From a virus, in the IMG/VR virus record IMGVR_UViG_3300031566_000064, positions 1 to 49,746 of that record: a DNA stretch of 49,746 nt; one strand, 5' to 3'. The position numbers and the translations under genes are program-made. Positions 1 through 49,746 of the stretch are shown here, one piece after another. The notes beneath the pieces were generated by a model that was given only the letters and a program-made list of their open reading frames with translations, made no database searches and was not told where the DNA came from. How positions within the stretch are numbered: position 1 is the stretch's first letter; every line of letters begins with the position of its first letter.

Positions 1-67
1 TGTCCGTAGGGCTTATAATGATGTCCTTACTTGGATAGAAAATTATATTGATAGTCGATTTGAATAA
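1..67 (+). CDS. 3' end of wrap-around small hypothetical gene
   Basis: This is the last 22 codons of the 56-aa gene read whole at 49511-49681, ending in IDSRFE and TAA. It appears here only because the contig ends overlap and should be counted once. Its stop lies 11 bases before the next ATG, with the ribosome site AAAGGAGC between them, so the two genes are probably co-transcribed. Confidence 0.75.
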   Translation, partial: VRRAYNDVLTWIENYIDSRFE

Positions 68-132
68 AAGGAGCAACCATGAAAGACATTAAAAACATGA
101 CGCCTGAGGAACTACTGGGAGTTGTAGTAGCT
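1..132. repeat. Terminal redundancy (left copy)
   Basis: Bases 1-132 are repeated at 49615-49746 with one difference (127 G, 49741 A, changing Val to Ile in the gene that starts at 79). Such a short repeat at the two contig ends is what an assembler leaves when it closes a circular or circularly permuted phage genome. It could also be a true short direct terminal repeat; read-depth data are needed to tell. Confidence 0.9.
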
Positions 133-1171: not shown

Positions 1172-1485
1172 TGGCTGCTTGTGTAATGTGTGGAAGCCTT
1201 ATACCTGACGGGCAAAGAACTTGCTCAATGTGCTATGGTGATATTGAACATGGAAATGATAATTACTGTGAATGCTCCCCTACCTTACGGAAGGGGCTTC
1301 TAAACCGAAGTTAGAGACTGCATTCCCAGTCTCAAAATATTGTAAGCATAGTCTTAATATATGTGCTTATTGATTAAAAGTCAAGAACAATTTAACGGCT
1401 GTATCCCCGCCCTTTCGGACAGGGTTTTAGCCCATATACAGATAAAGATTGGGCTGAAAAAGAAGACGATAGAAGAGAAGAATAA
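1171..1485 (+). pseudogene. Zinc-ribbon gene interrupted by miniature TnpB element
   Basis: The ATG at 1171 starts a zinc ribbon with two CxxC pairs (CVMCG at residues 4-8; CSMC at 18-21). As the DNA stands, the frame runs into the inserted element and ends at 1314 (47 aa, tail CSPTLRKGLLNRS encoded by the element). If 1268-1441 is removed exactly, codon 33 becomes TAT and the frame continues YKDWAEKEDDRREE to a TAA at 1483-1485, an acidic tail of the kind expected for such a protein. The Cys pairs lie before the insertion, so a truncated product may still fold. Confidence 0.75.
1268..1441 (-). mobile_element. Miniature TnpB element, copy 1 (174 bp)
   Basis: This is an internally deleted relative of the element at 34086-35311, in the opposite orientation. 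Read on the minus strand it has the left-end hairpin (1391-1416 region), a stretch matching the tnpB leader up to ATGCTTA, then a jump to the last tnpB codons, the scaffold hairpin (1313-1333 region) and the right-end hairpin ending in GCATTCAC. TTTAT (minus strand, 1442-1446) precedes the left end, as in the other two elements. It differs from copy 2 at three positions. There is no target duplication, as expected for the IS200/IS605 group. Confidence 0.88.
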
Positions 1486-10175: not shown

Positions 10176-10940
10176 ATGTCAAGAGAAATAAAGTGTTCGC
10201 AATGCGGCAAGGTGTTCGAGGCGAAAGGAAGTCGGGCTAAATGTTGCTCGGAGTCTTGCAGAAGAAAAGTCAGGGAGGCATACAACAAAAAATACCGTGA
10301 GACTCATAGGGAAGAACTTGCTGCACGCCGTAGAAAATACTATGAGACGCATAGAGAAGAGAGAAGAGCATACAACATAAAAAAACATGAAGACAATAAA
10401 GAAGAAGATAATGCACGCAGTAGAAAACACTACGAGACTCACAAAGAAGAACATGCTGCACACAGGAGAAAATGGTATGAGACTCACAGGGAAGAATGCA
10501 ATGCAGGCAGTAAAAAATGGCGTGAGACTCATAGGGAAGAACTTGCTGCAAATAAGAGAAAATATTACCATGAAATACAAAAATTAGACCCGCTGTATAT
10601 ACTAAACAAGCGTATGTCTTACGGTATAAGGGACTCATTAAAAGGCAATAAAAACGGTTCCCCGTGGGAAAGTTTAGTGCCTTACACTTTAGAAGATGTG
10701 CAGAAAAGTTTTGAAAAACTATTTAAACCGGGTATGACTTGGGAAAATTTTGGCAAATGGCATATTGACCATAAAATACCAGTATGGGCATTTAACTTTT
10801 CGAGTCCTTATGATATTGATTTTCAAAGATGTTGGGCTTTGGAAAACCTACAACCGATGTGGGCAGAAGATAATTTAAAGAAAAGCAACAAACTTGAACA
10901 AGCATTCCAACCGAGTCTTGCTTTTGGGATAGCAATATAA
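10176..10940 (+). CDS. HNH homing endonuclease with 15-residue repeats
   Basis: The 254-aa protein has an N-terminal zinc finger (CSQCGKVF then CCSESCRR), six tandem 15-residue units (residues about 39-128, consensus KYYETHREELAARRR) expected to form a long basic helix, and a C-terminal HNH-type domain (WHIDHKIPVWAFNF then RCWALENLQPMWAEDNLKKS). It likely cuts alleles lacking the insertion. It stands alone between portal and head genes and is flanked by 16-bp repeats. The C-terminal domain is shared with the gene at 29709 and the fragment at 15846. Confidence 0.85.
   Translation: MSREIKCSQCGKVFEAKGSRAKCCSESCRRKVREAYNKKYRETHREELAARRRKYYETHREERRAYNIKKHEDNKEEDNARSRKHYETHKEEHAAHRRKWYETHREECNAGSKKWRETHREELAANKRKYYHEIQKLDPLYILNKRMSYGIRDSLKGNKNGSPWESLVPYTLEDVQKSFEKLFKPGMTWENFGKWHIDHKIPVWAFNFSSPYDIDFQRCWALENLQPMWAEDNLKKSNKLEQAFQPSLAFGIAI
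10290..10559 (+). repeat. Six 45-bp tandem repeats in the HNH gene
   Basis: Six units of 45 bp encode KYRETHREE-type 15-mers. Codons differ between units, so expansion is not very recent. The third unit (KKHEDNKEEDNARSR) is the most diverged. Confidence 0.8.
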
Positions 10941-12521: not shown

Positions 12522-12697
12522 TTTGTTTCCGTCGGCAATAACTCAATTAATGATGTCAATAACTCTATTAAGGATAAATTACAGTCGAATAATGAACAGC
12601 ACAAAAACTCTAAAAACAATGAATGTGGTGATTAATTGAATAAAAATATTCTTTATCATATTTGTGCTTTTTATATAACTAATTACACTACAAATTA

Positions 12698-12736
12698 GGT
12701 TAATGTCGGATTAACCCATATTTCGGATATCCGAAA
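12698..12736. promoter_or_regulatory. Two adjacent inverted repeats, operator-like
   Basis: GGTTAA-7 nt-TTAACC (12698-12716) is followed after four bases by the perfect 16-bp palindrome TTTCGGATATCCGAAA (12721-12736). No T run follows, so they are not terminators. Symmetry and position about 90 bp upstream of the promoter at 12825 suggest dimeric protein-binding sites. Confidence 0.5.
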
Positions 12737-12756
12737 CCCACATAATATTGACATTT

Positions 12757-12778
12757 AGTACACAAAGTAAAGGAGAGT
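12757..12778 (-). other. Perfect match to the TnpB element's right flank (guide)
   Basis: Read on the minus strand, these 22 bases are identical to 35310-35331: the last two bases of the TnpB element plus the 20 nt directly after it, the position from which TnpB guide RNA is taken. The five bases 5' of the match on the minus strand are TTTAC (12777-12781), one base from the TTTAT that precedes all three element left ends. On the + strand the site is part of a 10-bp tandem repeat (AGTAAAGGAG, AGTAAAGGAT). Confidence 0.85.
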
Positions 12779-12824
12779 AAAGGATATTAAATAAAAGAAT
12801 AAATGCGCGCGCGTAAAATATCAC

Positions 12825-12852
12825 TTGACATTTATTTGTAAAATATTATTAT
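12825..12852 (+). promoter_or_regulatory. Sigma70-type promoter upstream of prohead protease
   Basis: TTGACA (12825-12830), a 16-bp spacer and TATTAT (12847-12852). The predicted start is near 12859, giving a leader of about 60 nt before the terminator at 12880-12921. Confidence 0.65.
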
Positions 12853-15835: not shown

Positions 15836-15845
15836 GGCAAATAAA

Positions 15846-16025
15846 TTGGAAAAATGGCATATTGACCATATTATCCCAGTTTCAGCATTTAATTTTACCA
15901 AGCCCGAGCATATAGACTTTAATAAATGTTGGGCATTGAGTAATTTACAACCACTATGGGCAGAAGAAAATCTATCAAAACATAAAAAACTTAAAGAAGC
16001 TTTTCAACCAAGTTTTATGTTTTAG
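15846..16025 (+). pseudogene. HNH endonuclease remnant after capsid gene
   Basis: A 59-codon open frame with only a TTG at its head encodes KWHIDHIIPVSAFNFTKPEH, CWALSNLQPLWAEENLSKH and ends AFQPSFMF. This is the C-terminal HNH domain of the genes at 10176 and 29709 with everything before it gone. It lies directly after the capsid stop. It marks a past homing or recombination event, with most of the endonuclease since lost. Confidence 0.8.
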
Positions 16026-27420: not shown

Positions 27421-28652
27421 GTACGATTTATTATGAAGTTAACGACATTGATGTTTCAGATGAAGTACAACGTCAGTCATTAACCATAAATCATAGGCTG
27501 ACTTCAAGTGTTGATACGGCAGTATTTACAATGGTTGATCCTGATACTGCTCCTGTTCCCGGTAATAGTGTTCTGATATATCTTGATAATGCTACGCAGA
27601 AACTTTTTGCAGGTTTGATTGTATCAATAAATCAAAGAAAACTTGCTCCGGGAAGCTGGCAATATACTGTAAATTGTACGGATTGGCAGAGGCTTTTCGA
27701 TAAAAGATTGGTCGCAACTACTTATACGAGTAAGACGGTTCAACAAATTGTAGAGGATATAGTATCGAATTATACCGATGCAACAGTCGGATTCACTTCT
27801 AATAATGTAACAGGCGTTTCATTTATTACAATTAATGAGATGAGGTTCAATTATAGATACCCTTCGGATTGTTTGAGAGAACTTGCTGAATCTCATGGAT
27901 GTGAATGGTATATTGATGAAGATAAGGATGTTCATTTCTTTGTAAAACAGGAAGTTGAAGATGCTCCTTATGAAATAACGGATACAACTCTTAAAACAGT
28001 AATAAATACTTTTAATATAAGTATTGATTATTATCAGGTCAGGAATACTGTATATGTTCGGGGTGGCTATAAGCTTTCAAGCAGTATAACAGAAACGAGG
28101 GTTGCAGATGGTTCTCAAAGGACTTGGAATCTGCCGTATAAACCTTATTCTTTGAGTTTGACTGTCGATGGTGGTGCAAAAACACTCGGTGAGGAGTTTA
28201 TTGATGAAGATGACGGTAGCTATGAATATTTTTATAACTATGATGAAAAAATAGTCAAATGTGCGACTGCAGAAGCAACTCCTGCTCAAGGGATTTTAAT
28301 GGTTTTTTCATTCACTTTTGAAAGACCGATTTTGATTTATGCTACAGACGATGCCTCAATAAATGAAATAGCCGATGCGGAACTTGGAGACGGTAAATAT
28401 GAATATATTTATAAAGATACTAATTTAAACGAAAGCGAAGCATTTATTAGGGCAAAATATGAATTGCAAATAAATAAAGACCCCGTTATATCGGGCAGTT
28501 TTACCTCTCATGAATACGGATTCAAAGTTGGTCAAACATTGGCAATAAATTTCATTGGATGTGATTACAATGATGATTATGGTATAAATAATGTTACGAT
28601 CACTTCACTGGGAAATAATATTTTATTATATAGTATGGAGTTCACTAATTGA
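27417..28652 (+). CDS. Tail tip / baseplate hub protein
   Basis: 411 aa; ATG 27417 overlaps the tape-measure stop. The N-terminal barrel (YYEVNDIDVSDEVQRQSLTI, FAGLIVSINQRKLAPGSWQY, CTDWQRLFDKRLVA) and the middle domain (CLRELAESHGCEWYIDEDKD) fit gpD/gp27-like hub proteins that cap the tail tube and carry the distal baseplate. Gene order supports it. No enzymatic motif is visible. Confidence 0.75.
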   Translation: MSTIYYEVNDIDVSDEVQRQSLTINHRLTSSVDTAVFTMVDPDTAPVPGNSVLIYLDNATQKLFAGLIVSINQRKLAPGSWQYTVNCTDWQRLFDKRLVATTYTSKTVQQIVEDIVSNYTDATVGFTSNNVTGVSFITINEMRFNYRYPSDCLRELAESHGCEWYIDEDKDVHFFVKQEVEDAPYEITDTTLKTVINTFNISIDYYQVRNTVYVRGGYKLSSSITETRVADGSQRTWNLPYKPYSLSLTVDGGAKTLGEEFIDEDDGSYEYFYNYDEKIVKCATAEATPAQGILMVFSFTFERPILIYATDDASINEIADAELGDGKYEYIYKDTNLNESEAFIRAKYELQINKDPVISGSFTSHEYGFKVGQTLAINFIGCDYNDDYGINNVTITSLGNNILLYSMEFTN

Positions 28653-29125
28653 GTAATATAATATTAAAATGTAATGAAATTATCAAGCCTTCCGGCATAA
28701 TAACTTGCACAAAGAGGGATTGGAAAACCGGCGAGATATTGTCGGTCAATAGATATGATAATCTCATTGTAAACGTCTGGAAAAATGCAACCGCGAATAG
28801 ATACGGTCAGGTAGGCAATGATTGTGATATTACCTATGGAGCAGTGGGAACAGACGGAACGGCTCCGACGGTAAGCGATACAACTTTAACAACCGAACTT
28901 GACAGGTCTCTTATAACAGACATTTCTGCAAGTTCGAATGTAGTTACATTTTATGTGTTTTTTGATGCCGCAGATGCAAATGGTACTTTATTGGAGTTCG
29001 GGGCATTTGGAGAAGCTGCTACTTCTTCAGCTGATAGCGGCACGATGGTGAACCACGTATTGATTAATGAAATTAAATCAAGCTCTCAAACTTTGTTATT
29101 TCAATGTAAAATAACGGTAAGTTGA
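28649..29125 (+). CDS. Baseplate or tail-tip protein, 158 aa
   Basis: The start TTG 28649 overlaps the upstream TGA (TTGA), the third use of this junction here; GGAG is eight bases before it. It shows GIITCTKRDWKTGEILSVNR, YDNLIVNVWKNATANRYGQV and a beta-rich body, a pattern seen in small tail proteins following the hub. Function is by context. Confidence 0.65.
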   Translation: MSNIILKCNEIIKPSGIITCTKRDWKTGEILSVNRYDNLIVNVWKNATANRYGQVGNDCDITYGAVGTDGTAPTVSDTTLTTELDRSLITDISASSNVVTFYVFFDAADANGTLLEFGAFGEAATSSADSGTMVNHVLINEIKSSSQTLLFQCKITVS

Positions 29126-29126
29126 T

Positions 29127-29342
29127 ATGCCTAATCCGAATGAAGATTTAATCAGTTTAATTTTGGCTATTGTAAAGCAACAGCAGAATGTTGTCAATGT
29201 TAGAGATGACGAGCTTGTTGATAAACTGAAAATAGTCAGCGAAAGCGTTACATTGTCAGAAAGTTTAACGATTAAGAAAAATACACATCCAGTCAAATAT
29301 GATGATCCAGAAGCAATTTACGATAGATGCTCTTACGGTTAG
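29127..29342 (+). CDS. Small tail-region protein, 71 aa
   Basis: It is helical at the N-terminus (LISLILAIVKQQQNVVN) with a Ser-rich segment (SESVTLSESLTIKKN). The start ATG 29127 is one base after the previous stop. Unrecognised; probably a minor tail component or assembly factor. Confidence 0.6.
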   Translation: MPNPNEDLISLILAIVKQQQNVVNVRDDELVDKLKIVSESVTLSESLTIKKNTHPVKYDDPEAIYDRCSYG

Positions 29343-29352
29343 GAGGTTTTAA

Positions 29353-29700
29353 TTGGCTTATTCCAAGACAACTGCCCGGACTGCTCATAGTGATACAGTA
29401 ACAGCTGCTTTTCATAATTCTATTATGGCGGAACTAAAGGCTGCGGCAGAAAATATCACTTTACACGATGTGGATAAGGTCATAGCGTATACAGGAAATA
29501 AAATCTCAACTATTACTATTACTGATAATTCAGCAACATCTGGATATGATATAACAGCAGTTATGACTTTTATTTATACAGGATGGAAAGTAACTCAAAT
29601 TGTGACAGTCTTTGACGTTGGCGAGATGAATATAACTGTCACAGAAGTTTTTTCTTATTCTGGTTGGAAATGTACTGGTATTGCAAGGACGCTTTCATAA
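29353..29700 (+). CDS. Tail-region protein with TTG start, 115 aa
   Basis: TTG 29353 follows AGGAGG. The N-terminal segment (YSKTTARTAHSDTVTAAF) is helical; the second half has two similar beta-hairpins (FIYTGWKVTQIVTVFDVGE and FSYSGWKCTGIARTLS), a small internal duplication. Possibly a neck or fibre-attachment protein; no family recognised. Confidence 0.6.
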   Translation: MAYSKTTARTAHSDTVTAAFHNSIMAELKAAAENITLHDVDKVIAYTGNKISTITITDNSATSGYDITAVMTFIYTGWKVTQIVTVFDVGEMNITVTEVFSYSGWKCTGIARTLS

Positions 29701-29708
29701 GAGTGAAA

Positions 29709-30317
29709 ATGATGATAAAAATATGCTTAAATTGTGGGAAAGAATTTAAAACAAAATATAGCAGGTCAAAATACTGTTCCCAAGATTGTTTTCATAATAA
29801 TCAAATAGGTAGACATTTCTCTGAAAAATGGAAAAGTAATATGAGCAAAGCACAAAAAGGCAAAAAGCTTTCTGAGGAAACAAAAAAGAAAATAGGTGAG
29901 AGCCATAAAGGAGAAAGAAATTATCATTGGATGGGTGGATTAAAAGAATATAGGGAAAGACGTAAAAATAATCCAAGATATATTTTAAATAATAGAATAA
30001 GTCGTGGAATAAGTCATTGTTTGAAAGGCAATAAAAATGGTCGACATTGGGAGAAACTTGTTGGGTATACTCATAAACAACTAATAAAACATTTAAAAGA
30101 AACTCTTCCTGTTGGTTATGATTGGCAAGATTTCTTAAGTGGCAAATTACACATAGATCATAAAATACCAATTTCAGCACATAATTTTACCAAGCCTGAA
30201 CATATTGATTTTAAAAGATGCTGGGCATTGGTAAATTTACAATTATTACCAGCACTTAAAAATAGAATTAAACATGATAAATTAACAGAAGATTTTCAAC
30301 CAAGTTTTAAAATATAA
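29709..30317 (+). CDS. HNH homing endonuclease with NUMOD3-like region
   Basis: From ATG 29709, 202 aa: an N-terminal zinc finger (CLNCGKEF then KYCSQDCFHN), a NUMOD3-like DNA-binding block (MSKAQKGKKLSEETKKKIGE then SHKG) and a C-terminal HNH domain (HIDHKIPISAHNFTKPEH, CWALVNLQLLPALKNRIKH). It is homologous at the C-terminus to 10176-10940 and the fragment 15846-16025. It is a free-standing selfish gene set between tail genes; no intron borders are visible. Confidence 0.85.
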   Translation: MMIKICLNCGKEFKTKYSRSKYCSQDCFHNNQIGRHFSEKWKSNMSKAQKGKKLSEETKKKIGESHKGERNYHWMGGLKEYRERRKNNPRYILNNRISRGISHCLKGNKNGRHWEKLVGYTHKQLIKHLKETLPVGYDWQDFLSGKLHIDHKIPISAHNFTKPEHIDFKRCWALVNLQLLPALKNRIKHDKLTEDFQPSFKI

Positions 30318-30329
30318 AGGGAGCAAATC

Positions 30330-31898
30330 ATGGTAGGAGCAGAGATACTTACCGGAATTATTGCAGAGGGTATTGGTGTTCGTCACGGAACGTGTGATAC
30401 AGGCATGGGAGCCAGCACTACAACTGTAGTATGTGCGGATTTAGCAGGTTTTGGAGATGATTACTTTAACACGAAATTCTACATGCAGATTATTAAAAAC
30501 ACAAATTCCGTTGGCAATGCTCCAGAATCACAGGTTCGGCAAATAACAAATTATGTTTCTGCAACCGGAACATTCACGGTAACGGCGTTTGGAGCAAACG
30601 TCGAGGAGGGAGACTCGATATTTATAATACATGAATGTATTGCTTTGCTCGGACTTCATGCAGACGCTACACTTGCAAAAATGGTTGACGATTCATGGCT
30701 TGCACATATTCTTGCGATTGACGGCGATGTTTCCGATTTTAATGATAATACCGACTCTTTGGAAGCAATAAGTGATAAGCATTTAGTACCTGCTAAAGAT
30801 TCTACAGCTGATGTCAATATGCGTGATGTAGTCGGGAAGAAAGATGATACATTAAAGCCTTATTATAAAGACGATATAATTGCAGGCGGAACAGCAACAG
30901 CAAATGGATATGCAGAACCTTATGTTCCTTCGAATGCTTGTGATAATAATGTTGATACTTTTTGGACAGATATTAATGGTGCTCCGTGGTGGTGGAAATA
31001 TGATTTTGGAGTAGGGGTTACAAAGGTCGTTACTGGATATGCAATAAATGCGGGAATATATCCTACAAATAATCCTGGGAGTTGGACATTTGAAGGTTCT
31101 AATGATGATTCGGACTGGACTGTCCTTGACACACAATCTGAGATAAAGACAAATACTTTTCAATGGATGTCATTTGATATATATAGCAATTATACCGCAT
31201 ATAGATATTACCGGTTTAACATTACTGCAAATCAATCAGCGGGGAGTGTTGGTTTTTTAGCGGAGGTAGAATTTTATGAAGCCGGTGCGACAACAGGAAC
31301 AGTATCCTCTCATTCCATTTTAAAAGGAATACTTGCCAAAATCCCATTACTTGATAGGTTGATTAATACTATCGGGAATAAAGATGATACTGCAAATACT
31401 ACAGTTGACGATACTTCCTCAATAATGCGGTATATGAAAGGCGCCGTAAATCAACTTGCGTCAATTATAAGTAGCCTTTGGAAAGGGTACACAACTGCTG
31501 GAGTTATTGTTTGTGATACTTCTGTAGGAACTCCAGACATTATCGTAGTGGCAAGCTATGCTGCTGCGAATACATTTGGTAGCTGGACACAGATTGATGC
31601 TGCCGCAAGTGCTGATAGTTGCATAAATTGGATTCATGTTGCCTTAATTACTCTAACTGGTCGACTCGTGAAAGCTGCTATAGAAATTGGAACGGGTGCA
31701 GGTGGTTCTGAAGTAACAAAGATACGGATTCCATTTTCTGTATATGCTAATACCGATATTGCTCATGATAGTGTTGGAATAAGTTTAACAATACCAATTA
31801 AAGTTGCAAGTGGAACGAGAATTGCAGCAAGAATTACAGATAATGAAGAAGCAGCAACAAGCTATAACGTAGGCGTGGCTTACTATCAAGGTTTATAA
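30330..31898 (+). CDS. Receptor-binding candidate with discoidin-like domain
   Basis: 522 aa. Residues about 185-320 look like an F5/8 type C (discoidin, CBM32-like) beta-sandwich: PYVPSNACDNNVDTFWTDIN, WWWKYDFGVGVTKVVTGYAI, WTFEGSNDDSDWTVLDTQSE, YRYYRFNITANQSAG and LAEVEFYEAG. Such domains bind sugars. The N-terminus looks like a tail-attachment region and the C-terminal 150 residues are beta-rich. As the last large tail gene it is the best candidate for host-glycan recognition. Confidence 0.75.
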   Translation: MVGAEILTGIIAEGIGVRHGTCDTGMGASTTTVVCADLAGFGDDYFNTKFYMQIIKNTNSVGNAPESQVRQITNYVSATGTFTVTAFGANVEEGDSIFIIHECIALLGLHADATLAKMVDDSWLAHILAIDGDVSDFNDNTDSLEAISDKHLVPAKDSTADVNMRDVVGKKDDTLKPYYKDDIIAGGTATANGYAEPYVPSNACDNNVDTFWTDINGAPWWWKYDFGVGVTKVVTGYAINAGIYPTNNPGSWTFEGSNDDSDWTVLDTQSEIKTNTFQWMSFDIYSNYTAYRYYRFNITANQSAGSVGFLAEVEFYEAGATTGTVSSHSILKGILAKIPLLDRLINTIGNKDDTANTTVDDTSSIMRYMKGAVNQLASIISSLWKGYTTAGVIVCDTSVGTPDIIVVASYAAANTFGSWTQIDAAASADSCINWIHVALITLTGRLVKAAIEIGTGAGGSEVTKIRIPFSVYANTDIAHDSVGISLTIPIKVASGTRIAARITDNEEAATSYNVGVAYYQGL

Positions 31899-31919
31899 TC
31901 TAATAAAGGGAGATTTAAA

Positions 31920-32162
31920 ATGGCAGATTACACAATTACAATTACATTAACAGATGCTCAAGATTCGGCTATGAAAAATATCGCAACGAAAGCTGGAAAA
32001 ACTGTTGCTCAAATATTTCAGGAGTTCTGGGATGGGTACTCTGTTGATGGAAAAGTACAAGTTGGTGCAGTCAAATCTCAAATTAATCAATGGATTAATG
32101 ATGATTTGAAAACTGAACTTGCGAAAACAACACCGGAAAATGTATTAGCATTATTAAAATAA
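31920..32162 (+). CDS. Small MADYTIT paralog 1, 80 aa
   Basis: It begins MADYTITITLTDAQDSAMKN, nearly the same start as the next gene, so the pair arose by duplication. It has an N-terminal strand and then helices (TVAQIFQEFWDGYSVDG). GGGAG precedes ATG 31920. It may be a tail-fibre chaperone or minor tail protein; that is inference from position. Confidence 0.65.
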   Translation: MADYTITITLTDAQDSAMKNIATKAGKTVAQIFQEFWDGYSVDGKVQVGAVKSQINQWINDDLKTELAKTTPENVLALLK

Positions 32163-32179
32163 AATTGAGGAGAAATACA

Positions 32180-32443
32180 ATGGCAGACTACACAATTACA
32201 TTAACAACTAATCAGGATAATGCCCTGAAAGAGATAGCGGAGAAAGCTAACCTAACTCCACAAGATTACATCAGTAACATGGTTAAATCGTATATCAATA
32301 ATAACTTTATTTCGTATATCGTTAATAATAACACCATCACAAAGGACGAGATACTGGAACAGAATGCGAAACTGGTGATGTCTAAATCTGTTTATCTCGA
32401 AGATTTGGCAACGGCAAAGGCCGAAGCGTTACCTGTTAAATAA
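32180..32443 (+). CDS. Small MADYTIT paralog 2, 87 aa
   Basis: ATG 32180 (TTGAGGAG upstream) gives MADYTITLTTNQDNALKEIA followed by helices (NLTPQDYISNMVKSYINNNF). It is paralogous to 31920-32162, and the two have since diverged strongly after residue 20. The longer in-frame start at 32165 lacks a ribosome site. Confidence 0.65.
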   Translation: MADYTITLTTNQDNALKEIAEKANLTPQDYISNMVKSYINNNFISYIVNNNTITKDEILEQNAKLVMSKSVYLEDLATAKAEALPVK

Positions 32444-32462
32444 TTAATTGCTGTAATAAAAG

Positions 32463-32502
32463 CTAAAACTAATGACTCCGAAAGGGGAGGCTACGGTTTT
32501 AG
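32463..32502 (+). other. Intergenic RNA hairpin before holin-region operon
   Basis: CTAAAAC (32463-32469) pairs with GTTTTAG (32496-32502), with an inner CTCC/GGAG stem (32476-32489). No T run follows. It could be an mRNA processing or stability element between tail and lysis genes. Confidence 0.4.
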
Positions 32503-32521
32503 AAAGGCAAAGGAAAATTCG

Positions 32522-32851
32522 ATGATTGAGAATATGTCCGGTTCAGAGGTAACTATTGGGGTTGTGATAGCCACTTTTATCGGCAATATTATTGCCATGC
32601 GGGTTGGGTATGGGAAAGATATTTCAAAGAATCGTGAAAATGTAGATAGGCAGAGTAAAAATATCGATAAATTATTCGATGTAACTGATGATATAAACAA
32701 GGCAATAGTAGGGAAAAATCAATGCAAGGATTTTCGTGATGAATTCGGGCATAGAATGGTCGAAGTCAAAACCGATTTAATGGCTGAGCTAAAAAACTTG
32801 GACAGAAAATTTGATAAGTATATTCTCAATGGCAACAGTAAAAGCAAGTGA
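32522..32851 (+). CDS. Membrane-anchored coiled-coil protein, 109 aa
   Basis: One N-terminal membrane segment (VTIGVVIATFIGNIIAMRVG) is followed by a long coiled coil (NVDRQSKNIDKLFDVTDDIN, RMVEVKTDLMAELKNLDRKF). The layout is the reverse of XhlA-type hemolysins and similar to small lysis-accessory proteins. AAAGGA precedes ATG 32522. It sits at the head of the lysis-region cluster. Confidence 0.6.
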   Translation: MIENMSGSEVTIGVVIATFIGNIIAMRVGYGKDISKNRENVDRQSKNIDKLFDVTDDINKAIVGKNQCKDFRDEFGHRMVEVKTDLMAELKNLDRKFDKYILNGNSKSK

Positions 32852-32852
32852 T

Positions 32853-33356
32853 ATGTCATTAACGAAATATATAAACCGCCTTTTCAATCGGCATAAACAA
32901 GCAAAGAAAGAACCGGGTAATATGATAACCATAAAGAGATATTTAACAGGCGATGACGGAACGGCCGGAGTTTTGTTTATGAAAGGTTTCGGCTGCTATA
33001 CGCTCGAATTGCCTTGGCGATATAATGAGCCATGCGTGTCTTGCATAAGACCCGGTGTTTATTCAGCGATTATTGATAACAACACAATAATCGGAGGACA
33101 GCCGGTTATAAGATTTTACGATGACCAGTTTGATAAAGAAAGATATGGAATATTAATACACATAGGAAATTACGCAGGTGATAAAGATAAGGGCTTCAGG
33201 AGCGATGTGCAGGGATGTATCTGTGTAGGTATGGGAACAGGTACGTTGAGCAATCAGAGGGCGGTTACGAGTTCTCGTGCCGCTATGACAGAGTTACTTG
33301 CAAACGTCAAGGAGGGGGCGGTTGCAATATCAATCGAGAATATTTACGAAACATAA
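32853..33356 (+). CDS. DUF5675-like protein in lysis region
   Basis: The core ITIKRYLTGDDGTAGVLF, CYTLELPWRYNEPCVSCIRP then GVYSA, and YGILIHIGNYAGDKDKGF then CICVG match the DUF5675 family found in phage lysis and tail regions; the biochemical activity is not established. Starts at 32829 (MATVKAS) or 32853 (MSLTKY) are both possible; the latter directly follows the previous stop. From 32853 it has 167 aa. Confidence 0.7.
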   Translation: MSLTKYINRLFNRHKQAKKEPGNMITIKRYLTGDDGTAGVLFMKGFGCYTLELPWRYNEPCVSCIRPGVYSAIIDNNTIIGGQPVIRFYDDQFDKERYGILIHIGNYAGDKDKGFRSDVQGCICVGMGTGTLSNQRAVTSSRAAMTELLANVKEGAVAISIENIYET

Positions 33357-33368
33357 AAGGAGGTTATC

Positions 33369-33767
33369 ATGTTTGGATCAGTAGTAGGTGTTTTAACAGG
33401 TGTGGCAAAGGCAGTCGGTTCTATTCTCCTAACTCCGCAAGGAGTGGCAGTAGGACTTGGTGCGATAATCGTTGCTTATATTCTCAAGAAAATTGACAAT
33501 GAGTATTTAAAGGGACTCATTAAAAAGCCGTTTCTCAAACTGGCTGAATATCTCGAAAAGCTATTTTACGGTTTAGGCGCTGCCCTGACACTCGGATTAT
33601 CGAAGTGGAAATGGTCGGCCGGCTTGTGGAATAAAACGATTGAGCCGTATATTGTCGATGCTATTGATAACATCATTAACGGAGTTATTGACGGCGTTGA
33701 GGCGATTATTGATGCCATAAGGGACGGTTTTATTCGAGGTTTGAAATCAGACAACGAGGATAAATGA
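33369..33767 (+). CDS. Membrane protein, putative holin component, 132 aa
   Basis: The hydrophobic N-terminus (VVGVLTGVAKAVGSILL and GVAVGLGAIIVAYIL) gives one or two membrane spans; the rest is amphipathic helices (IIDAIRDGFIRGLKSDNEDK end). AAAAGGAGG precedes ATG 33369. The position after the DUF5675 gene suggests lysis, but no holin family is recognised. Confidence 0.6.
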   Translation: MFGSVVGVLTGVAKAVGSILLTPQGVAVGLGAIIVAYILKKIDNEYLKGLIKKPFLKLAEYLEKLFYGLGAALTLGLSKWKWSAGLWNKTIEPYIVDAIDNIINGVIDGVEAIIDAIRDGFIRGLKSDNEDK

Positions 33768-34006
33768 TGCCGGATCCGGTAAAAATAGCTGAAGCCCAAG
33801 CGCGACCTTGGTATAAGGTTCGCAGAATAAGAGGCTGTTTGCTTGGAGTAATCGGTGCAGCTCTCATATCGATACCGGCCGCTCCTGCAATAGTTACGAT
33901 AGGAGCGTTTGCTTTAACAACTCAAACTGTAGGTATTTTGGTGAGTGGCGTTGCGACATACATTTACGGTTACGGTTCCGGTGCCAAAGTAGAGAGGGAA
34001 AAGTAA
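33764..34006 (+). CDS. Two-span membrane protein, putative holin, 80 aa
   Basis: ATG 33764 overlaps the previous stop (ATGATG). A basic start is followed by two hydrophobic stretches (CLLGVIGAALISIPAAPAIV and GAFALTTQTVGILVSGVATY) and a charged C-terminus (KVEREK): the size and topology of a small class II holin. It is the last gene before the strong terminator at 34053. Confidence 0.6.
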   Translation: MMPDPVKIAEAQARPWYKVRRIRGCLLGVIGAALISIPAAPAIVTIGAFALTTQTVGILVSGVATYIYGYGSGAKVEREK

Positions 34007-34052
34007 ATAAGAGTGTTCTACATGGCCCTCCGGTAGGTAGATTCACTCGCAA

Positions 34053-34084
34053 GAGGTAGGACTTCGGTTCTGCCTCTTTTTTTA
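34053..34084 (+). terminator. Strong intrinsic terminator of the late operon
   Basis: A 10-bp stem GAGGTAGGAC (34053-34062) and GTTCTGCCTC (34067-34076) with a TTCG tetraloop is followed by seven T residues. It ends the head-tail-lysis transcript. The TnpB element begins two bases after the T run, so the terminator tail supplies the TTTAT insertion motif. Confidence 0.92.
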
Positions 34085-34085
34085 T

Positions 34086-35311
34086 TGGACTCACCAAGAA
34101 TACCCCGTTGCTTGCGGCGGGGATGAATTGGTAAAAATAGTTCTTGATTTTTAAGCAAGAATTGCATATATTAGTCCTATGCTTAAGAAAACCTACAAAT
34201 TCAGACTCTATCCAACAAAGAAACAAGCAAGGATATTGCAACTTTCTCTCGATGCTTGTCGGTGGGTATATAATAAGACTCTTGAAACCAGAAAAACAGC
34301 ATGGGAAGATAGAAAAGAATCTGTTTCTCTTTACGATACCAGCAATCTTATCGTTCGGTGGAAAGAAGAGAAACCAGAACTTGTCAATGCTCATTCGCAG
34401 TGCCTTCAAAATGCTCAAATGCGTGTTGACCTTGCATTTAAGGCATTCTTTCGCCGTGTCAAGATGGGTGAGAAACCAGGGTATCCTCGCTTTCGTGGAT
34501 TCGATAGATACGATAGTTTTACTTTTCCGCAGAGTGGGTTTAAACTTATCGGCGACAGACTCAAACTTTCCAAAGTAGGTTCTGTAAAAGTCCGCAAGCA
34601 TAGACAGATAGAAGGCATTATAAAAACTTTGTCTATTCGGAGAATAAACAATAAATGGTATGCCTGTTTCTCTTGTGAGGTTCAATCCCAACCGCTTCCC
34701 GTTGTCGATGCGGTGGTTGGTATTGACGTTGGACTCGAATCTTTCGCCACATTTTCTACTAGTGAAAAGATTGAGAATCCCCGCTTTTTCAAAACAGATG
34801 AACTCAAACTTGCGAAAGCGCAACGCAGATTTTCCAAACAAGAGAAGGGCACTCTGCAAAGAAAAAAAGTTAAAAAGGTTGTTTCTCGTATTTACGAAAA
34901 AATTACGAATAGAAGAACTGATTTTACACATAAACTTTCTCGTAAAATTGTGAATAACTATCAAATAATCGCCTTTGAAAAACTCAACATTAAACAGATG
35001 CAGGAAAACGGATTTAAAAGCATTCGCAAAAGTATTGCCGACGTTGCTTGGAATCAATTCATTCAATTCACAATCTACAAAGCGGAAGATGCTGGTCGGA
35101 CTGTGGTATGTATTGACCCTCGCAACACAAGCAAGATGTGTTCTCGGTGTGGACAACTCGTTGAAAAGAAATTGTCTGATAGAGTTCATTCTTGCTCCTG
35201 CGGTCTTGTAATTGATCGTGATCATAATGCCTCAATTAATATTTTAGCTCTTGGAATGAAGAGCTTAACTTCGGTTTAGATGCCTCGACCCTTGGGTCGG
35301 GGAGCATTCAC
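34086..35311 (+). mobile_element. TnpB-only IS200/IS605-type element (1226 bp)
   Basis: The left end follows TTTAT (34081-34085) and has a hairpin with CCCCG...CGGGG (about 34103-34123). The right end has the hairpin CTCGACCC/GGGTCGGG (35284-35302) and stops at GCATTCAC (35304-35311). Ends were fixed by alignment with the two miniature copies, which diverge exactly there. It contains only tnpB; no Y1 transposase (TnpA) is present in the window, so movement would need TnpA in trans. No target duplication is seen. Confidence 0.88.
34179..35279 (+). CDS. tnpB: TnpB RNA-guided nuclease
   Basis: TnpB is the ancestor of Cas12: it uses an RNA made from the element's right end to cut DNA next to a short 5' motif. 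The 366-aa protein starts MLKKTYKFRLYPTKKQARIL (N-terminal helical/OB region). It has RuvC motifs GIDVGLESFA (Asp183), IIAFEKLNIKQM (Glu267) and DRDHNASINI (Asp348), and a zinc finger CSRCG...CSCG (321-341). All three catalytic acids are present, so it is probably active and not a dead TldR-type repressor. The stop is within the RNA scaffold region. Confidence 0.93.
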   Translation: MLKKTYKFRLYPTKKQARILQLSLDACRWVYNKTLETRKTAWEDRKESVSLYDTSNLIVRWKEEKPELVNAHSQCLQNAQMRVDLAFKAFFRRVKMGEKPGYPRFRGFDRYDSFTFPQSGFKLIGDRLKLSKVGSVKVRKHRQIEGIIKTLSIRRINNKWYACFSCEVQSQPLPVVDAVVGIDVGLESFATFSTSEKIENPRFFKTDELKLAKAQRRFSKQEKGTLQRKKVKKVVSRIYEKITNRRTDFTHKLSRKIVNNYQIIAFEKLNIKQMQENGFKSIRKSIADVAWNQFIQFTIYKAEDAGRTVVCIDPRNTSKMCSRCGQLVEKKLSDRVHSCSCGLVIDRDHNASINILALGMKSLTSV

Positions 35312-35331
35312 TCTCCTTTACTTTGTGTACT
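35230..35331 (+). ncRNA. Predicted TnpB guide RNA (omega/reRNA), 3' part
   Basis: In TnpB systems the RNA scaffold overlaps the 3' end of tnpB and ends in a guide of about 16-20 nt taken from the flank. Here hairpin 1 is AGCTCTT/AAGAGCT (35246-35265, loop GGAATG), hairpin 2 is the right-end stem (35284-35302), and the predicted guide is 35312-35331. The miniature copies keep hairpin 1 with the same loop but a different stem, GAGACTG/CAGTCTC, which supports the fold. The 5' limit is a guess. Confidence 0.7.
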
Positions 35332-35394
35332 TATTGACATCATAAACCGAGTTAATGACGACAGAAACTATAATGAAAACAGAGGGAACGGAGA
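35312..35394 (+). other. Flank and leader before the helicase gene
   Basis: This 83-bp gap holds the TnpB flank identical to 12757-12776 (minus strand), a TTGACA at 35334 without a convincing -10 at correct spacing, and a 17-codon frame (35354-35407, MTTETIMKTEGTEIVNN) of doubtful reality. A TATAAT at 35368 is too far from the TTGACA for a normal promoter. Confidence 0.4.
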
Positions 35395-36774
35395 TTGTTA
35401 ATAATTAATTATACTGAATTTATTAGAAATAAAGGGCAGTTGTCAACAAATAGTGGTTTTAAGCCATTATTTATGCCAGACTTTTTGTTTGATTTTCAGG
35501 AGGCTTTAACTACATGGGCAATAGAAAAAGGCAAATCAGCTATTTTTGCCGATTGTGGTCTGGGCAAGACACCTATGCAATTAGTCTGGGCACAAAACGT
35601 ATTGGAGAAAACAAATAAGCCAGTATTAATTATAACACCTCTCGCGGTATCCGCGCAGACAATTAAGGAAGGGGAAAAGTTTAATATTAAATGTACAAGG
35701 TCAAGGGACGGAAAAATAGAAAAGGGTATAAATGTTACAAATTATGAACGCTTGCATTATTTTAATGCGGATGATTTTTCAGGAGTTGTTTGTGATGAAA
35801 GCAGTATATTGAAAAATTTTTCAGGTGTCAGGAGAAAAGAAATAACTGAATTTTTATGTAAAACAAAATATAGATTATTGTGTACTGCGACAGCTTCACC
35901 GAATGACTATGTGGAACTTGGCACATCTTCAGAAGCACTCGGAGAGTTAGGGAATATGGATATGCTTTCTATGTTTTTTAAAACATCTGATAATGCTCTT
36001 CAAATATCTCAAAGATACGGTGATTTTTGGAATAGAAACAGGTGGAGATTTAAGGCTCATTCCGAAGAAGGTTTTTGGAGGTGGGTATGTTCATGGGCAA
36101 GGGCATTAAGAAAGCCGTCCGATTTAGGTTTTGATGATAAAGATTTTATTTTACCACCGCTCACTATTGAAGATACGGTTTGTAATCACAATATTACACT
36201 ATTCGGCGAACTCTTTGTCAAAGAAGCCGTTACTCTTAATGAGCAACGAGAAGAACGGAGGGTAACAATAAAACAAAGGTGTGAAGCGGTTTATGAGAAA
36301 GTTTCGGACCACGACACGAGTCTTATTTGGTGTCAGATGAATGATGAAGGTAATTATCTTGAAAAAATAATACCAGAATCAAAACAAATTTGTGGTGCTG
36401 ATTCAGATGAGAAGAAAGAGGAAACATTCCTTGCGTTTCAAAAAGGAGAATTGAGAAGATTAATTACAAAGCCAAAAATAGGTGCGTTCGGTTTAAATTT
36501 TCAAAATTGTTCCCATGTTACATTTTTTCCATCACATTCATTTGAACAATATTATCAGGGTGTTAGAAGGTGTTGGAGATTTGGACAGAAAAAACCAGTT
36601 AAGGTGGATATAATAACAACTATTGGGGAAATAGGTGTTATGAAAAACCTATTAAAAAAGGCTGATGCTGCGGATGTAATGTTTTCTAATTTAGTAAAAT
36701 TTATGAATTCTGAACTTAAAATAAACCGTACACTTAAAAAAACAAAAGAAATGAGGATACCGGAATGGGCATAA
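35395..36774 (+). CDS. SNF2/DEAD-type helicase paired with methyltransferase
   Basis: Superfamily 2 motifs: Walker A FADCGLGKT (51-59), motif II CDESS (133-137), motif III LCTATASPND, and C-terminal motifs GLNFQNCSHVTFF and EQYYQGVRRCWRFGQ with the arginine finger. TTG 35395 keeps the usual N-terminal YTEFIRNKGQ region; the next ATG (residue 27) would remove it. It overlaps the DNA methyltransferase by ten bases, a pairing common in phages and reminiscent of restriction-modification or anti-restriction modules. No nuclease domain is visible. Confidence 0.85.
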   Translation: MLIINYTEFIRNKGQLSTNSGFKPLFMPDFLFDFQEALTTWAIEKGKSAIFADCGLGKTPMQLVWAQNVLEKTNKPVLIITPLAVSAQTIKEGEKFNIKCTRSRDGKIEKGINVTNYERLHYFNADDFSGVVCDESSILKNFSGVRRKEITEFLCKTKYRLLCTATASPNDYVELGTSSEALGELGNMDMLSMFFKTSDNALQISQRYGDFWNRNRWRFKAHSEEGFWRWVCSWARALRKPSDLGFDDKDFILPPLTIEDTVCNHNITLFGELFVKEAVTLNEQREERRVTIKQRCEAVYEKVSDHDTSLIWCQMNDEGNYLEKIIPESKQICGADSDEKKEETFLAFQKGELRRLITKPKIGAFGLNFQNCSHVTFFPSHSFEQYYQGVRRCWRFGQKKPVKVDIITTIGEIGVMKNLLKKADAADVMFSNLVKFMNSELKINRTLKKTKEMRIPEWA

Positions 36775-37736
36775 TAAGCCAAAAGATAACAGAAGATTAT
36801 GCGGCTTACAATGGCGACTGCATGGAAGTATTCCCTAAACTGAAAACCAATTCTATTCATTTATCTGTTTATTCGCCGCCATTTTCTGATTTATATAACT
36901 ATTCAAGCGATGATGAGGATATGAGTAATTGCAGGAATTATAAACAATTTCTCGACCAGTATAATTATTTAATAAAAGAAATATATCGTACAACTCTACC
37001 CGGTAGAATATCAGCGGTACATTGCATGGATATAAAGATTCCTGGCGATAATTCATCTTTTAGAGATTTTCCCGGCGATATTATACGGATGTATCAAGAT
37101 GCAGGTTTTAAATATCAGACAAGGTTTTGTATATGGAAAGAGCCATTTAAAGTAGCAATAAGAACAAGAGCGTTGGGATTAATGCACAGGCAATTAACAA
37201 AAGATTCCACTCTATGCCATTCAGCAGGTGCAGATTATGTTTTGATATTTAGGAAAAATGGAGGCAATAGTATCCCTGTTACACATCCTGATGGGTTGCT
37301 TGAATATGCCGGGGAACGTGATATTCCCGAAGGTTTGGTTGAAAAATATAGATATGGTTGGGATGATTCGAGAACTAATAAATTATCGCAATGGATATGG
37401 CGGCAATATGCTTCATCACATTGGGATGATATAAGAACAGGGAATGTTTTACCATATAATGAAGCCCGTGATTTGGAAGAAGAAAAGCACGTTTGCCCTT
37501 TGCAGCTAGATGTTATTGAAAGAATTATAATCCTTTACTCAAATGAAGGTGAAACAATTGCAACTCCATTTATGGGTGTAGGCTCTGAAATTTACATGGC
37601 TGTCAAAAAGAGACGTAAGGGTATAGGTGTAGAGCTAAAAAGCTCTTATTTTAGACAGGCTATGAATAATATAGAACATGCAAAAGATGCACTGCCAGTT
37701 TCGATATTTGATATAGAAGAAGATGAGGAGCTATAA
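36765..37736 (+). CDS. DNA methyltransferase (N4/N6, beta-class-like)
   Basis: Motif IV is SPPF (37-40, in HLSVYSPPFSDLYNY), marking an amino-methyltransferase acting on A or C. Motif X/I lie at the C-terminus (IIILYSNEGETIATPFMGVG then SEIYMAVKKRRKGIGVEL), an order typical of beta-type enzymes. 323 aa. It overlaps the helicase gene upstream, and the two probably act together. No cognate restriction nuclease is seen, so protection of phage DNA from host restriction is the likely job; the target sequence is unknown. Confidence 0.88.
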   Translation: MGIISQKITEDYAAYNGDCMEVFPKLKTNSIHLSVYSPPFSDLYNYSSDDEDMSNCRNYKQFLDQYNYLIKEIYRTTLPGRISAVHCMDIKIPGDNSSFRDFPGDIIRMYQDAGFKYQTRFCIWKEPFKVAIRTRALGLMHRQLTKDSTLCHSAGADYVLIFRKNGGNSIPVTHPDGLLEYAGERDIPEGLVEKYRYGWDDSRTNKLSQWIWRQYASSHWDDIRTGNVLPYNEARDLEEEKHVCPLQLDVIERIIILYSNEGETIATPFMGVGSEIYMAVKKRRKGIGVELKSSYFRQAMNNIEHAKDALPVSIFDIEEDEEL

Positions 37737-37777
37737 TTACACCATTCAACCGGCACAAAATCAAGAAAGGCTACACA

Positions 37778-38008
37778 ATGGAAAAAAGAACAAGATTTAT
37801 CAAAAACAGAACAGGTCGTAAGCCAGTAGTATGCAATATCAACAAGGAAAGGAAAGAATTCAAACCGGCATGGAGAGCATCAGTCGGAGAGTTTGACAAG
37901 CACGGATTGATAGTTACCAAAGGAGAAACAAGAAACCTTGCACTAATACAACTGGCAAAGATTGTGAATATTATACCGAGAAAGGATTTCAGGAAAGGCG
38001 GCAAATAG
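37778..38008 (+). CDS. Small basic hypothetical protein, 76 aa
   Basis: Lys/Arg-rich (MEKRTRFIKNRTGRKPVVCN, end IIPRKDFRKGGK) with a short beta-strand pattern. A weak AAGAAAGG-like site precedes ATG 37778. It could bind nucleic acid. It is the last gene before the promoter at 38023. Confidence 0.6.
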   Translation: MEKRTRFIKNRTGRKPVVCNINKERKEFKPAWRASVGEFDKHGLIVTKGETRNLALIQLAKIVNIIPRKDFRKGGK

Positions 38009-38051
38009 GGAAAATATTTCCCTTGACAAACAAAGGTTAATAAATTATAGT
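38008..38051 (+). promoter_or_regulatory. Sigma70-type promoter with overlapping inverted repeat
   Basis: TTGACA (38023-38028), a 17-bp spacer and TATAGT (38046-38051). The inverted repeat GGGAAA-ATA-TTTCCC (38008-38022) ends at the base before the -35 box, a good position for an operator. It is probably the main promoter of the right-hand early cluster. Confidence 0.75.
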
Positions 38052-38066
38052 ATAATTAATAAAAGG

Positions 38067-38174
38067 ATGGCGCAAGTGATATTCCACTACAAAGAATTTG
38101 ACTCCAGTAAACCAAAAAGCGACACTCGGGAGAGTATCGCCTTTGGGTTTCCGAACTCAGCCTGGAGGACGTAA
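38067..38174 (+). CDS. Possible small protein, 35 aa (or structured leader)
   Basis: ATG 38067 (or GTG 38076, better spaced from AAAAGG) opens MAQVIFHYKEFDSS, then KPKSDTRESIAFGFPNSAWR and Thr before a TAA. The composition looks protein-like. The same bases can fold as RNA (see 38102-38167), so coding and structure compete as explanations. No family recognised. Confidence 0.4.
   Translation: MAQVIFHYKEFDSSKPKSDTRESIAFGFPNSAWRT
38102..38167 (+). promoter_or_regulatory. Foldable leader RNA hiding a ribosome site
   Basis: Three nested stems: CTCCAG/CTGGAG (38102-38107 with 38162-38167), AAACCAAA/TTTGG(G)TTT (38109-38116 with 38142-38150) and GCGACACTC/GAGTATCGC (38119-38127 with 38132-38140, one mismatch) closed by a GGGA (GNRA) tetraloop. 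The outer stem covers the ribosome-site-like GGAGG. About 50 nt downstream of the promoter at 38023, it could be a regulatory leader. No known riboswitch class matches by eye. Confidence 0.4.
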
Positions 38175-38209
38175 GCAGGAAGAATGATGAAAAGGACAAC
38201 TGTCTAAAT

Positions 38210-38383
38210 GTGAATGCTCCCCTACCTTACGGAAGGGGCCTCTAAACCGAAGTTAAAGACTGCATTCCCAGTCTCAAAATATTGTAAGCATAGTCTTAAT
38301 ATATGTGCTTATTGCTTAAAAGTCAAGAACAATTTAACGGCTGTATCCCCGCCCTTTCGGACAGGGTTTTAGCCCATATACAG
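38210..38383 (-). mobile_element. Miniature TnpB element, copy 2 (174 bp)
   Basis: Same length as and three mismatches from copy 1 (1268-1441), also opposite to the full element. Minus-strand TTTAT (38384-38388) precedes its left end. It lies in a leader region, where the frame that starts at ATG 38184 has already stopped (38205-38207), so no gene is visibly split. The close identity of two copies at unrelated sites indicates recent movement or conversion. Confidence 0.88.
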
Positions 38384-43415: not shown

Positions 43416-43798
43416 ATTACTGTTACGGTTACGGTTTCGGTTCCGGTGACGGTGACGGTTACGGTTCCGGTTACGGTGACGGTTCCGGTTACGGTTACGG
43501 TTCCGGTTACGGTTCCGGTTCCGGTTCCGGTTCCGGTTCCGGTGACGGTTCCGGTTACTGTTACGGTTCCGGTGACGGTGACGGTTACGGTGACGGTTCC
43601 GGTTCCGGTTACGGTTACGGTTACGGTTTCGGTTCCGGTGACGGTTCCGGTTACGGTTACGGTTCCGGTTACGGTTCCGGTGACGGTGACGGTTCCGGTT
43701 CCGGTTACGGTTACGGTGACGGTTCCGGTTCCGGTTACGGTTACGGTTACGGTTTCGGTTCCGGTGACGGTGACGGTTACGGTTCCGGTTACGGTTGA
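43403..43798 (+). CDS. Glycine-dipeptide repeat protein, 131 aa
   Basis: After MEKLNYC nearly the entire chain is X-Gly dipeptides, with X being Tyr, Ser, Asp, Phe or Cys, about 62 in a row (for example GYGSGYGDGSGYGYGSG). It is encoded by hexanucleotides GGTTAC, GGTTCC, GGTGAC and GGTTTC. The start overlaps the preceding gene. The product is probably disordered or phase-separating; DG-rich stretches might bind calcium. Similar genes follow DUF6948 genes in other phages, so the pairing is unlikely to be chance. Confidence 0.7.
   Translation: MEKLNYCYGYGFGSGDGDGYGSGYGDGSGYGYGSGYGSGSGSGSGSGDGSGYCYGSGDGDGYGDGSGSGYGYGYGFGSGDGSGYGYGSGYGSGDGDGSGSGYGYGDGSGSGYGYGYGFGSGDGDGYGSGYG
43421..43797 (+). 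repeat. Hexanucleotide tandem array (GGTTMC/GGTGAC)
   Basis: About 62 six-base units with GGT fixed and the second triplet varying. All three frames of the + strand stay open; the frame from 43446 would encode a Thr-Val/Pro-Val repeat to 43868. Gain or loss of units keeps the frame, so length should vary between isolates. Confidence 0.85.
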
Positions 43799-43854
43799 AG
43801 GTATTTTAATTGAACATTATTTAGAATCGTTAATAATAAAAATTGGAGAACAAA

Positions 43855-44127
43855 ATGAGAATTCTTAAATTTGAAATGCGCGACGAGGTAAAAGACGTTA
43901 TTACTGGCTTTAAAGGCGTGGTAATAGCAAGGACTGAATGGAGCAATGGTTGTGTTCGATATACCTTAATGCCAAAGGCTTTAAAAGATGGCATTCCTCA
44001 AGATAGTGTCACTATTGACGAAGAACAGCTTGTATTGGTTTCAAAGGCAAAGAAGAAAGAAGTAGCTCCGTCTGGTGGAGAAAGGCAAAATTTCACGCTC
44101 AATCACATGAACCCTAAAAAACAATAA
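43855..44127 (+). CDS. Conserved phage protein with TGFKGVVIA motif, 90 aa
   Basis: ATG 43855 follows TTGGAGAA. DEVKDVITGFKGVVIARTEW then SNGCVRYTLMPKAL, and IDEEQLVLVSK, form a small SH3/KOW-like barrel found in many phages. Its role is unknown; translation or replication accessory roles have no support here. Confidence 0.65.
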   Translation: MRILKFEMRDEVKDVITGFKGVVIARTEWSNGCVRYTLMPKALKDGIPQDSVTIDEEQLVLVSKAKKKEVAPSGGERQNFTLNHMNPKKQ

Positions 44128-49511: not shown

Positions 49512-49681
49512 TGGCAATATATACAGAGCAAGATAGAATTGCAGATAACACATTAACTGCATTATTGGAGGATTTTATTAAATATCTTTCCCAACAGAAT
49601 GTTAAAAATGATGATGTCCGTAGGGCTTATAATGATGTCCTTACTTGGATAGAAAATTATATTGATAGTCGATTTGAATAA
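49511..49681 (+). CDS. Small hypothetical protein, 56 aa (complete copy)
   Basis: ATG 49511 overlaps the previous TAA; AGGTGGAA lies upstream. It is acidic and helical (DRIADNTLTALLEDFIKYLS then RRAYNDVLTWIENYIDSRFE). Its 3' end is repeated at 1-67 through the contig overlap. Confidence 0.7.
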   Translation: MAIYTEQDRIADNTLTALLEDFIKYLSQQNVKNDDVRRAYNDVLTWIENYIDSRFE

Positions 49682-49746
49682 AAGGAGCAACCATGAAAGA
49701 CATTAAAAACATGACGCCTGAGGAACTACTGGGAGTTGTAATAGCT
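49615..49746. repeat. Terminal redundancy (right copy)
   Basis: Copy of 1-132 with one base difference at 49741 (A for G at 127). See the left copy. Confidence 0.9.
49693..49746 (+). CDS. 5' end of the 98-aa gene (duplicate of 79 onward)
   Basis: The first 18 codons of the gene at 79-375 appear again here because of the end overlap, with one Val-to-Ile change at codon 17. Do not count it twice. Confidence 0.85.
   Translation, partial: MKDIKNMTPEELLGVVIA

What the first reader, a model, noticed from the sequence alone, without database searches (positions are those of the whole stretch)
12757..12781. TnpB guide perfectly matches a site in the same phage genome
The 20 nt directly after the right end of the TnpB element (35312-35331) are identical to the minus strand of 12757-12776; with the last two element bases the identity is 22/22. 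The element end was fixed independently by alignment with two miniature copies. A 20-nt chance match at exactly this spot is very unlikely in 50 kb. The TTTAC next to the target differs in one base from the TTTAT found at all three element left ends. Either the phage has a repeated control sequence and the element landed in one copy, making its guide recognise the other, or TnpB is aimed at the phage's capsid-gene control region. The one-base motif difference could be what spares the genome.
Basis: partly seen in the sequence, partly recalled or inferred. Interest (0 to 1): 0.88.

Follow-up and report, generated by a model that had tools for sequence, protein, structure and literature searches.

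The report
Phage TnpB guide matches phage repeat
A phage carries a small RNA-guided DNA cutter (TnpB) whose built-in guide perfectly matches a second spot in the phage's own genome, most likely because the element landed beside one of two copies of a duplicated phage sequence rather than because it evolved to aim there.

Summary
The 20 nt after the TnpB element's right end (35312-35331) equal the minus strand of 12757-12776 (22/22 with the last two element bases), and chance is excluded. Element ends are solid: TTTAT|34086...35311, ending in TTCAC, supported by two 174-bp mini-copies. TnpB looks catalytically intact, and no TnpA lies in the genome.

Another 38 nt downstream (35331-35368, 84%) matches 12525-12562(-), same order and orientation, with about 190 bp extra at the 12.5-kb copy (0 of 2000 shuffles). 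The left flank has no match. The pair is therefore best read as a duplicated non-coding phage segment, with TnpB inserted at the edge of one copy; the guide inherits the match. TTTAC versus TTTAT is probably a weakened TAM, reducing self-cutting, but not proven to abolish it.

It remains unusual: none of 12 other phage TnpB elements checked has such a match. Perfect identity over exactly the guide, against 84% beyond it (p about 0.02), leaves room for selection on pairing or phage-versus-phage targeting. No relative with an empty site exists in the collections searched; the only close relative lacks the TnpB region.

The parts
34086..35311 (+). TnpB-only IS200/IS605-type element (1226 bp)
   Evidence: ends aligned to two mini-copies; left TTTAT|, right TTCAC|
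34081..34085 (+). TTTAT target motif / TAM at the left end, in the T-tract of a terminator
34051..34078 (+). terminator-like hairpin of the upstream gene, directly left of the insertion
34179..35279 (+). tnpB gene, 366 aa, with GIDVG / AFEKLN / DRDHNA RuvC motifs and CxxC...CxC zinc ribbon
   Evidence: Pfam OrfB_IS605, Cas12f1-like_TNB, HTH_OrfB; NCBIfam guided_TnpB 305 bits; ISDra2 TnpB 8bf8 E=3e-55
35238..35311 (+). right-end guide-RNA scaffold (two hairpins), 75-77% identical to the minis with pairing kept
35312..35331 (+). presumed guide (20 nt), identical to 12757-12776 minus strand
35331..35368 (+). second homologous block, 84% to 12525-12562 minus strand
   Evidence: 0 of 2000 shuffles
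12757..12776 (-). target-like copy of the guide sequence
12777..12781 (-). TTTAC, TAM position of the target-like copy, one base off TTTAT
12525..12562 (-). copy of the second homologous block, just after the stop of the head-morphogenesis gene
12721..12736 (+). perfect palindrome TTTCGGATATCCGAAA between the two homologous blocks; operator-like, absent from the TnpB-side copy
12825..12852 (+). promoter-like TTGACA-16-TATTAT upstream of the prohead-protease gene
1268..1441 (-). 174-bp mini-copy 1 (no tnpB) with scaffold and its own 20-nt flank
38210..38383 (-). 174-bp mini-copy 2 (no tnpB)

Best explanation
A non-coding segment of the phage exists in two diverged copies: one in the gap upstream of the prohead-protease/capsid genes (12525-12781, minus orientation) and one between a terminator and the helicase gene (35312-35368). 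They differ by about 190 bp between the two blocks. A TnpB-only IS200/IS605-type element inserted 3' of a TTTAT in the terminator's T-tract, at the edge of the second copy. Because TnpB takes its guide from whatever lies to the right of the element, the guide automatically equals the other copy. Steps shown: the match, the second homologous block, the element ends, intact nuclease motifs, and TTTAC at the other copy. Steps inferred: that TnpB is expressed and its guide starts at 35312; that TTTAC is a weak TAM so the 12.7-kb copy is cut poorly; and that the usual role, re-installing the element at empty TTTAT sites on sister or co-infecting genomes, is what TnpB does here.
For: Two adjacent homologous blocks in the same order and orientation, the second reached by 0 of 2000 shuffles. 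In a whole-window self-comparison these are the only dispersed non-coding matches at that score apart from the minis, the terminal repeat and a 46.2/47.1-kb intergenic repeat. The second block extends well past a 20-nt guide, which guide selection alone would not explain. Catalytic motifs align with ISDra2 TnpB. No TnpA in the record. A TTCAC end plus guide immediately after it, and no cutting at TTCAC, are experimentally established for SisTnpB7 (PMC11043419).
Against: The homology begins exactly at the element end or TAM and the left flank does not match, so the insertion point coinciding with a repeat edge is a moderate coincidence. The guide stretch is 22/22 while the next block is 84%; with uniform divergence this has p about 0.02. 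No empty site could be found: the only relative lacks the TnpB region.
Confidence: 0.62

Rival explanations
1. The element brought its right flank with it. It once sat at the 12.7-kb-type locus of this or a related phage, and a faulty right-end cleavage or recombination moved element plus 57+ nt of flank to the terminator at 34085.
For: Homology starts exactly at the element end and lies only on the right. The left junction is a canonical TTTAT insertion site.
Against: No cleavage-like motif at the far end of the homology (35368, GAAAC rather than TTCAC). The 12.7-kb copy reads TTTAC, not the TTTAT of all three insertions here. The 12.7-kb site shows no scar and is intact in the relative.
Confidence: 0.15
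2. TnpB acts as a homing or competition nuclease against related phages whose 12.7-kb-type locus carries TTTAT, and this phage is protected by TTTAC. This would parallel the intron endonuclease that sabotages a co-infecting phage (PMC11620839).
For: Perfect identity over exactly the guide length against 84% beyond; a one-base TAM change at the self target; a TnpB relative in another phage contig carries a recoded gene end that breaks its own guide match, showing that phage TnpB elements can coexist with protected self targets.
Against: No related phage with TTTAT at that locus is known: the 18-mer occurs in one other IMG/VR contig, near-identical and also TTTAC. The second homologous block is not explained by guide selection.
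Confidence: 0.12
3. TnpB with this guide binds the 12.7-kb site and regulates capsid-gene transcription, like a TldR repressor.
For: The target lies in the intergenic region upstream of the prohead-protease gene.
Against: The RuvC residues are intact, whereas TldRs have lost them (own knowledge). The target is 49 nt upstream of the -35-like box, and the TAM is off consensus.
Confidence: 0.04
4. Chance or assembly artefact.
For: The window is a metagenome contig, and the TnpB side is not covered by a second assembly.
Against: Shuffles reach at most 12 nt. The 12.7-kb locus is 100% identical in an independent contig, and the sequence after the guide differs at the two places, so no simple mis-join explains both.
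Confidence: 0.03

Closest known systems
IS200/IS605 TnpB elements (ISDra2 TnpB; SisTnpB7 of Sulfolobus islandicus)
   Same: TnpB domains, right-end guide RNA, guide = right flank, TTTAN-type TAM and TTCAC end as in SisTnpB7 (PMC11043419), RuvC motifs
   Different: No tnpA in the record; sits in a phage; guide has a second perfect match in the same genome next to a one-base TAM variant
Phage homing endonucleases and the intron endonuclease of phage PhiPA3 (PMC11620839)
   Same: Selfish nuclease in a phage whose target lies in phage DNA; self genome possibly protected by a small change
   Different: RNA-guided; target in the same genome rather than shown in a rival; no rival target known
TldR, TnpB-derived RNA-guided repressors of phages (PMC13418256)
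   Same: Phage-encoded TnpB-like protein with a guide matching an intergenic region
   Different: Catalytic residues intact; no promoter overlap; target in the phage, not in a host gene

Membership tests
IS200/IS605-family TnpB (RNA-guided nuclease) | TnpB domain architecture (HTH, RuvC-like, zinc ribbon) | tested here: met
   Pfam all three domains over cut-off; NCBIfam guided_TnpB 305 vs cut-off 100
IS200/IS605-family TnpB (RNA-guided nuclease) | RuvC catalytic D/E/D residues | tested here: met
   GIDVG, AFEKLN, DRDHNA align with the closest chain of known structure, a 408-aa designed nuclease of the same length as ISDra2 TnpB
IS200/IS605-family TnpB (RNA-guided nuclease) | structured right-end RNA followed by the flank as guide | tested here: inconclusive
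   hairpins conserved with pairing kept in the minis, but the fold z-score of the TnpB copy is only -0.9 and there is no RNA data
IS200/IS605-family TnpB (RNA-guided nuclease) | fixed target motif at the left end, scarless insertion | tested here: met
   TTTAT at 3 of 3 left ends; mini1 removal restores a plausible frame
IS200/IS605-family TnpB (RNA-guided nuclease) | TnpA (Y1) transposase in the element (autonomous members only) | tested here: not met
   no PF01797 match in the record; fits TnpB-only elements, not autonomous ones
IS200/IS605-family TnpB (RNA-guided nuclease) | guide-dependent cleavage next to the TAM | not testable with these tools
   needs a TAM/cleavage assay
TldR (nuclease-dead TnpB repressor) | loss of RuvC catalytic residues | tested here: not met
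Homing nuclease | intact target in element-free relatives of the same locus | tested here: inconclusive
   no relative covering the TnpB locus in IMG/VR or INPHARED

The most novel reading that the evidence does not exclude
A phage TnpB whose guide is kept perfectly matched to a second phage locus. It cuts that locus in competing phages that carry TTTAT, while its own genome is spared by a single TAM base (TTTAC): an RNA-guided, self-immune anti-competitor weapon built from a transposon.
Probability: 0.1. Interest if true: 0.85.

Novelty: new member of a known kind. Interest (0 to 1): 0.42.

Why it matters
TnpB guides normally match only the empty insertion site. Here a natural second match with a one-base TAM change sits in the same small genome, so the tolerance of a TnpB to self-targeting, and the idea that TAM changes give immunity, can be tested with two natural sites. 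If the guide-length perfect identity is selected, phage TnpB elements would be RNA-guided analogues of homing endonucleases used in phage competition.

Tried and rejected
Empty-site search: the 18-nt guide core occurs in only one other IMG/VR contig, near-identical, and that contig stops on both sides of the TnpB region (28272 / 38271). TnpB relatives in IMG/VR are at most 63% identical, in unrelated contigs. Capsid and Mu-F-like queries found only the same near-identical contig as a close relative. Helicase relatives (at most 65%) do not share the flanking sequence. A degenerate scan for the second block gave two chance hits in coding DNA. Distant blastn of both loci against phages and plasmids gave only short AT-rich hits inside unrelated coding genes. 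The guides of the two minis have no other match in the window. Guide self-matches were sought in 10 TnpB elements of 9 annotated phages and in the phage contigs L006 and L007: none. The regulator (TldR-like) idea was rejected on the intact RuvC motifs and promoter distance. No Rfam match or tRNA in the window.

Full report
What is there. The window is a tailed-phage genome: portal 8742, Mu-F-like head protein 11649, prohead protease 12938, HK97-type capsid 14531, helicase 35395 and methyltransferase 36765. It has 132-bp direct end repeats. A second contig (IMGVR_UViG_3300031565_000131) matches at about 99-100% in every stretch compared and runs across the window's ends, so the genome is circular or circularly permuted, about 49.6 kb. 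That contig lacks window 28273-38270, which includes the TnpB region.

The observation. 35312-35331 equals the minus strand of 12757-12776. Shuffled windows give guide-prefix matches of at most 12 nt, and the 18-nt core with up to 3 mismatches is found only at these two places, with 0.06 expected.

The element. The TnpB element is 34086-35311: TTTAT stands left of it and it ends in TTCAC. The two mini-copies (1268-1441 and 38210-38383, 174 bp each, minus strand) fix both ends. The distance from TTTAT to a shared GCGGGGAT is 31 nt in all three, and all right ends read GAGCATTCAC. Removing mini1 restores a frame ...GNDNYYKDWAEKEDDRREE*; no homologue was found to confirm that protein. The right-end hairpins are kept in the minis with changed sequence. 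TnpB has all three Pfam domains and intact RuvC and zinc-ribbon motifs. No Y1 transposase is present. TnpB inserted in the T-tract of a terminator (34051-34085).

The homology between the TnpB flank and the 12.5-kb region continues. 35331-35368 matches 12525-12562 (minus strand) at 84% over 38 nt, in the same order and orientation, with about 190 bp between the two blocks at the 12.5-kb side and none at the TnpB side. No shuffle of 2000 reached that score (maximum 28 against 44). The sequence left of the element does not match beyond chance (103 of 1000 shuffles as good). The second block lies beyond any TnpB guide, so the simplest reading is a duplicated non-coding phage segment with the element inserted at the edge of one copy. 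The 12.5-kb copy carries an operator-like palindrome (12721-12736) in the extra 190 bp, and a promoter-like site (12825-12852) lies further downstream.

What remains odd. First, the guide stretch is 22/22 while the next block is 84%; under one divergence rate this has p about 0.02. Second, homology begins at the element end or TAM. Third, none of 10 TnpB elements in 9 annotated phages (regions up to 50 kb each, so several genomes were not searched whole) and none of the two IMG/VR relatives has a second match of its guide in its own genome. These facts keep two alternatives open: the flank travelled with the element, or guide-target pairing is under selection.

Would the phage cut itself? In SisTnpB7, which has the same TTCAC end and a TTTAA TAM, the guide starts right after UUCAC. 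TTCAC is not cut, the base next to the target had the second strongest TAM effect, 13-14 matched bases suffice, and weak TAMs with a full match are cut slowly (PMC11043419). By analogy TTTAC here should be a weak TAM: reduced, not certainly absent, cutting. This is inference from a distant homologue.

A possibly related case. In another phage contig (L007), a TnpB with 55% identity sits at the end of an upstream gene. The gene's last ten codons and stop (VISYRDKWSA*) occur on both sides of the element, with 10 of 33 nt different, all synonymous. The left copy keeps the gene intact and has four mismatches to the guide. This looks like a self-protected target by recoding and makes a homing-type role for phage TnpBs plausible, but it is one case with no relative to compare.

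Verdict. Observation confirmed and extended. The repeat explanation is the most likely (0.62); active targeting of rivals is possible but without direct evidence (about 0.1). The element itself is an ordinary TnpB-only IS200/IS605-type element; the self-matching guide with a one-base TAM change makes it a useful natural test case.

Noticed in passing
L007 2898-2930 and 4177-4209: TnpB relative (55%) in a phage contig: the last ten codons plus stop of the upstream gene (VISYRDKWSA*) are present on both sides of the element with 10/33 differences, all synonymous; the left copy keeps the gene whole and breaks the guide match (mismatches at guide positions 6, 9, 15, 18).
   Followed up: partly
window 1268-1441 and 38210-38383: Two 174-bp mini-copies without tnpB keep a guide-RNA scaffold resembling that of the resident TnpB and have their own flanks; they could supply guides in trans.
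   Followed up: partly
window 1-132 and 49615-49746: 132-bp direct repeat at the contig ends (one mismatch); a near-identical contig runs across the junction, so the genome is circular or permuted.
   Followed up: yes
window 12698-12736: Two dyads in the gap upstream of the prohead-protease gene: GGTTAATGTCGGATTAACC and TTTCGGATATCCGAAA, both containing TCGGAT; operator-like.
   Followed up: no
window 10746-10919, 15843-16016, 30135-30308: A 174-nt stretch repeated at three places (64-73%); the first lies in an endonuclease-VII/HNH-like gene, so these may be dispersed homing-endonuclease copies or remnants.
   Followed up: no
window 43417-43862: Long array of TACGGT/TCCGGT-like 6-nt units (period 12/18) inside an ORF.
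   Followed up: no
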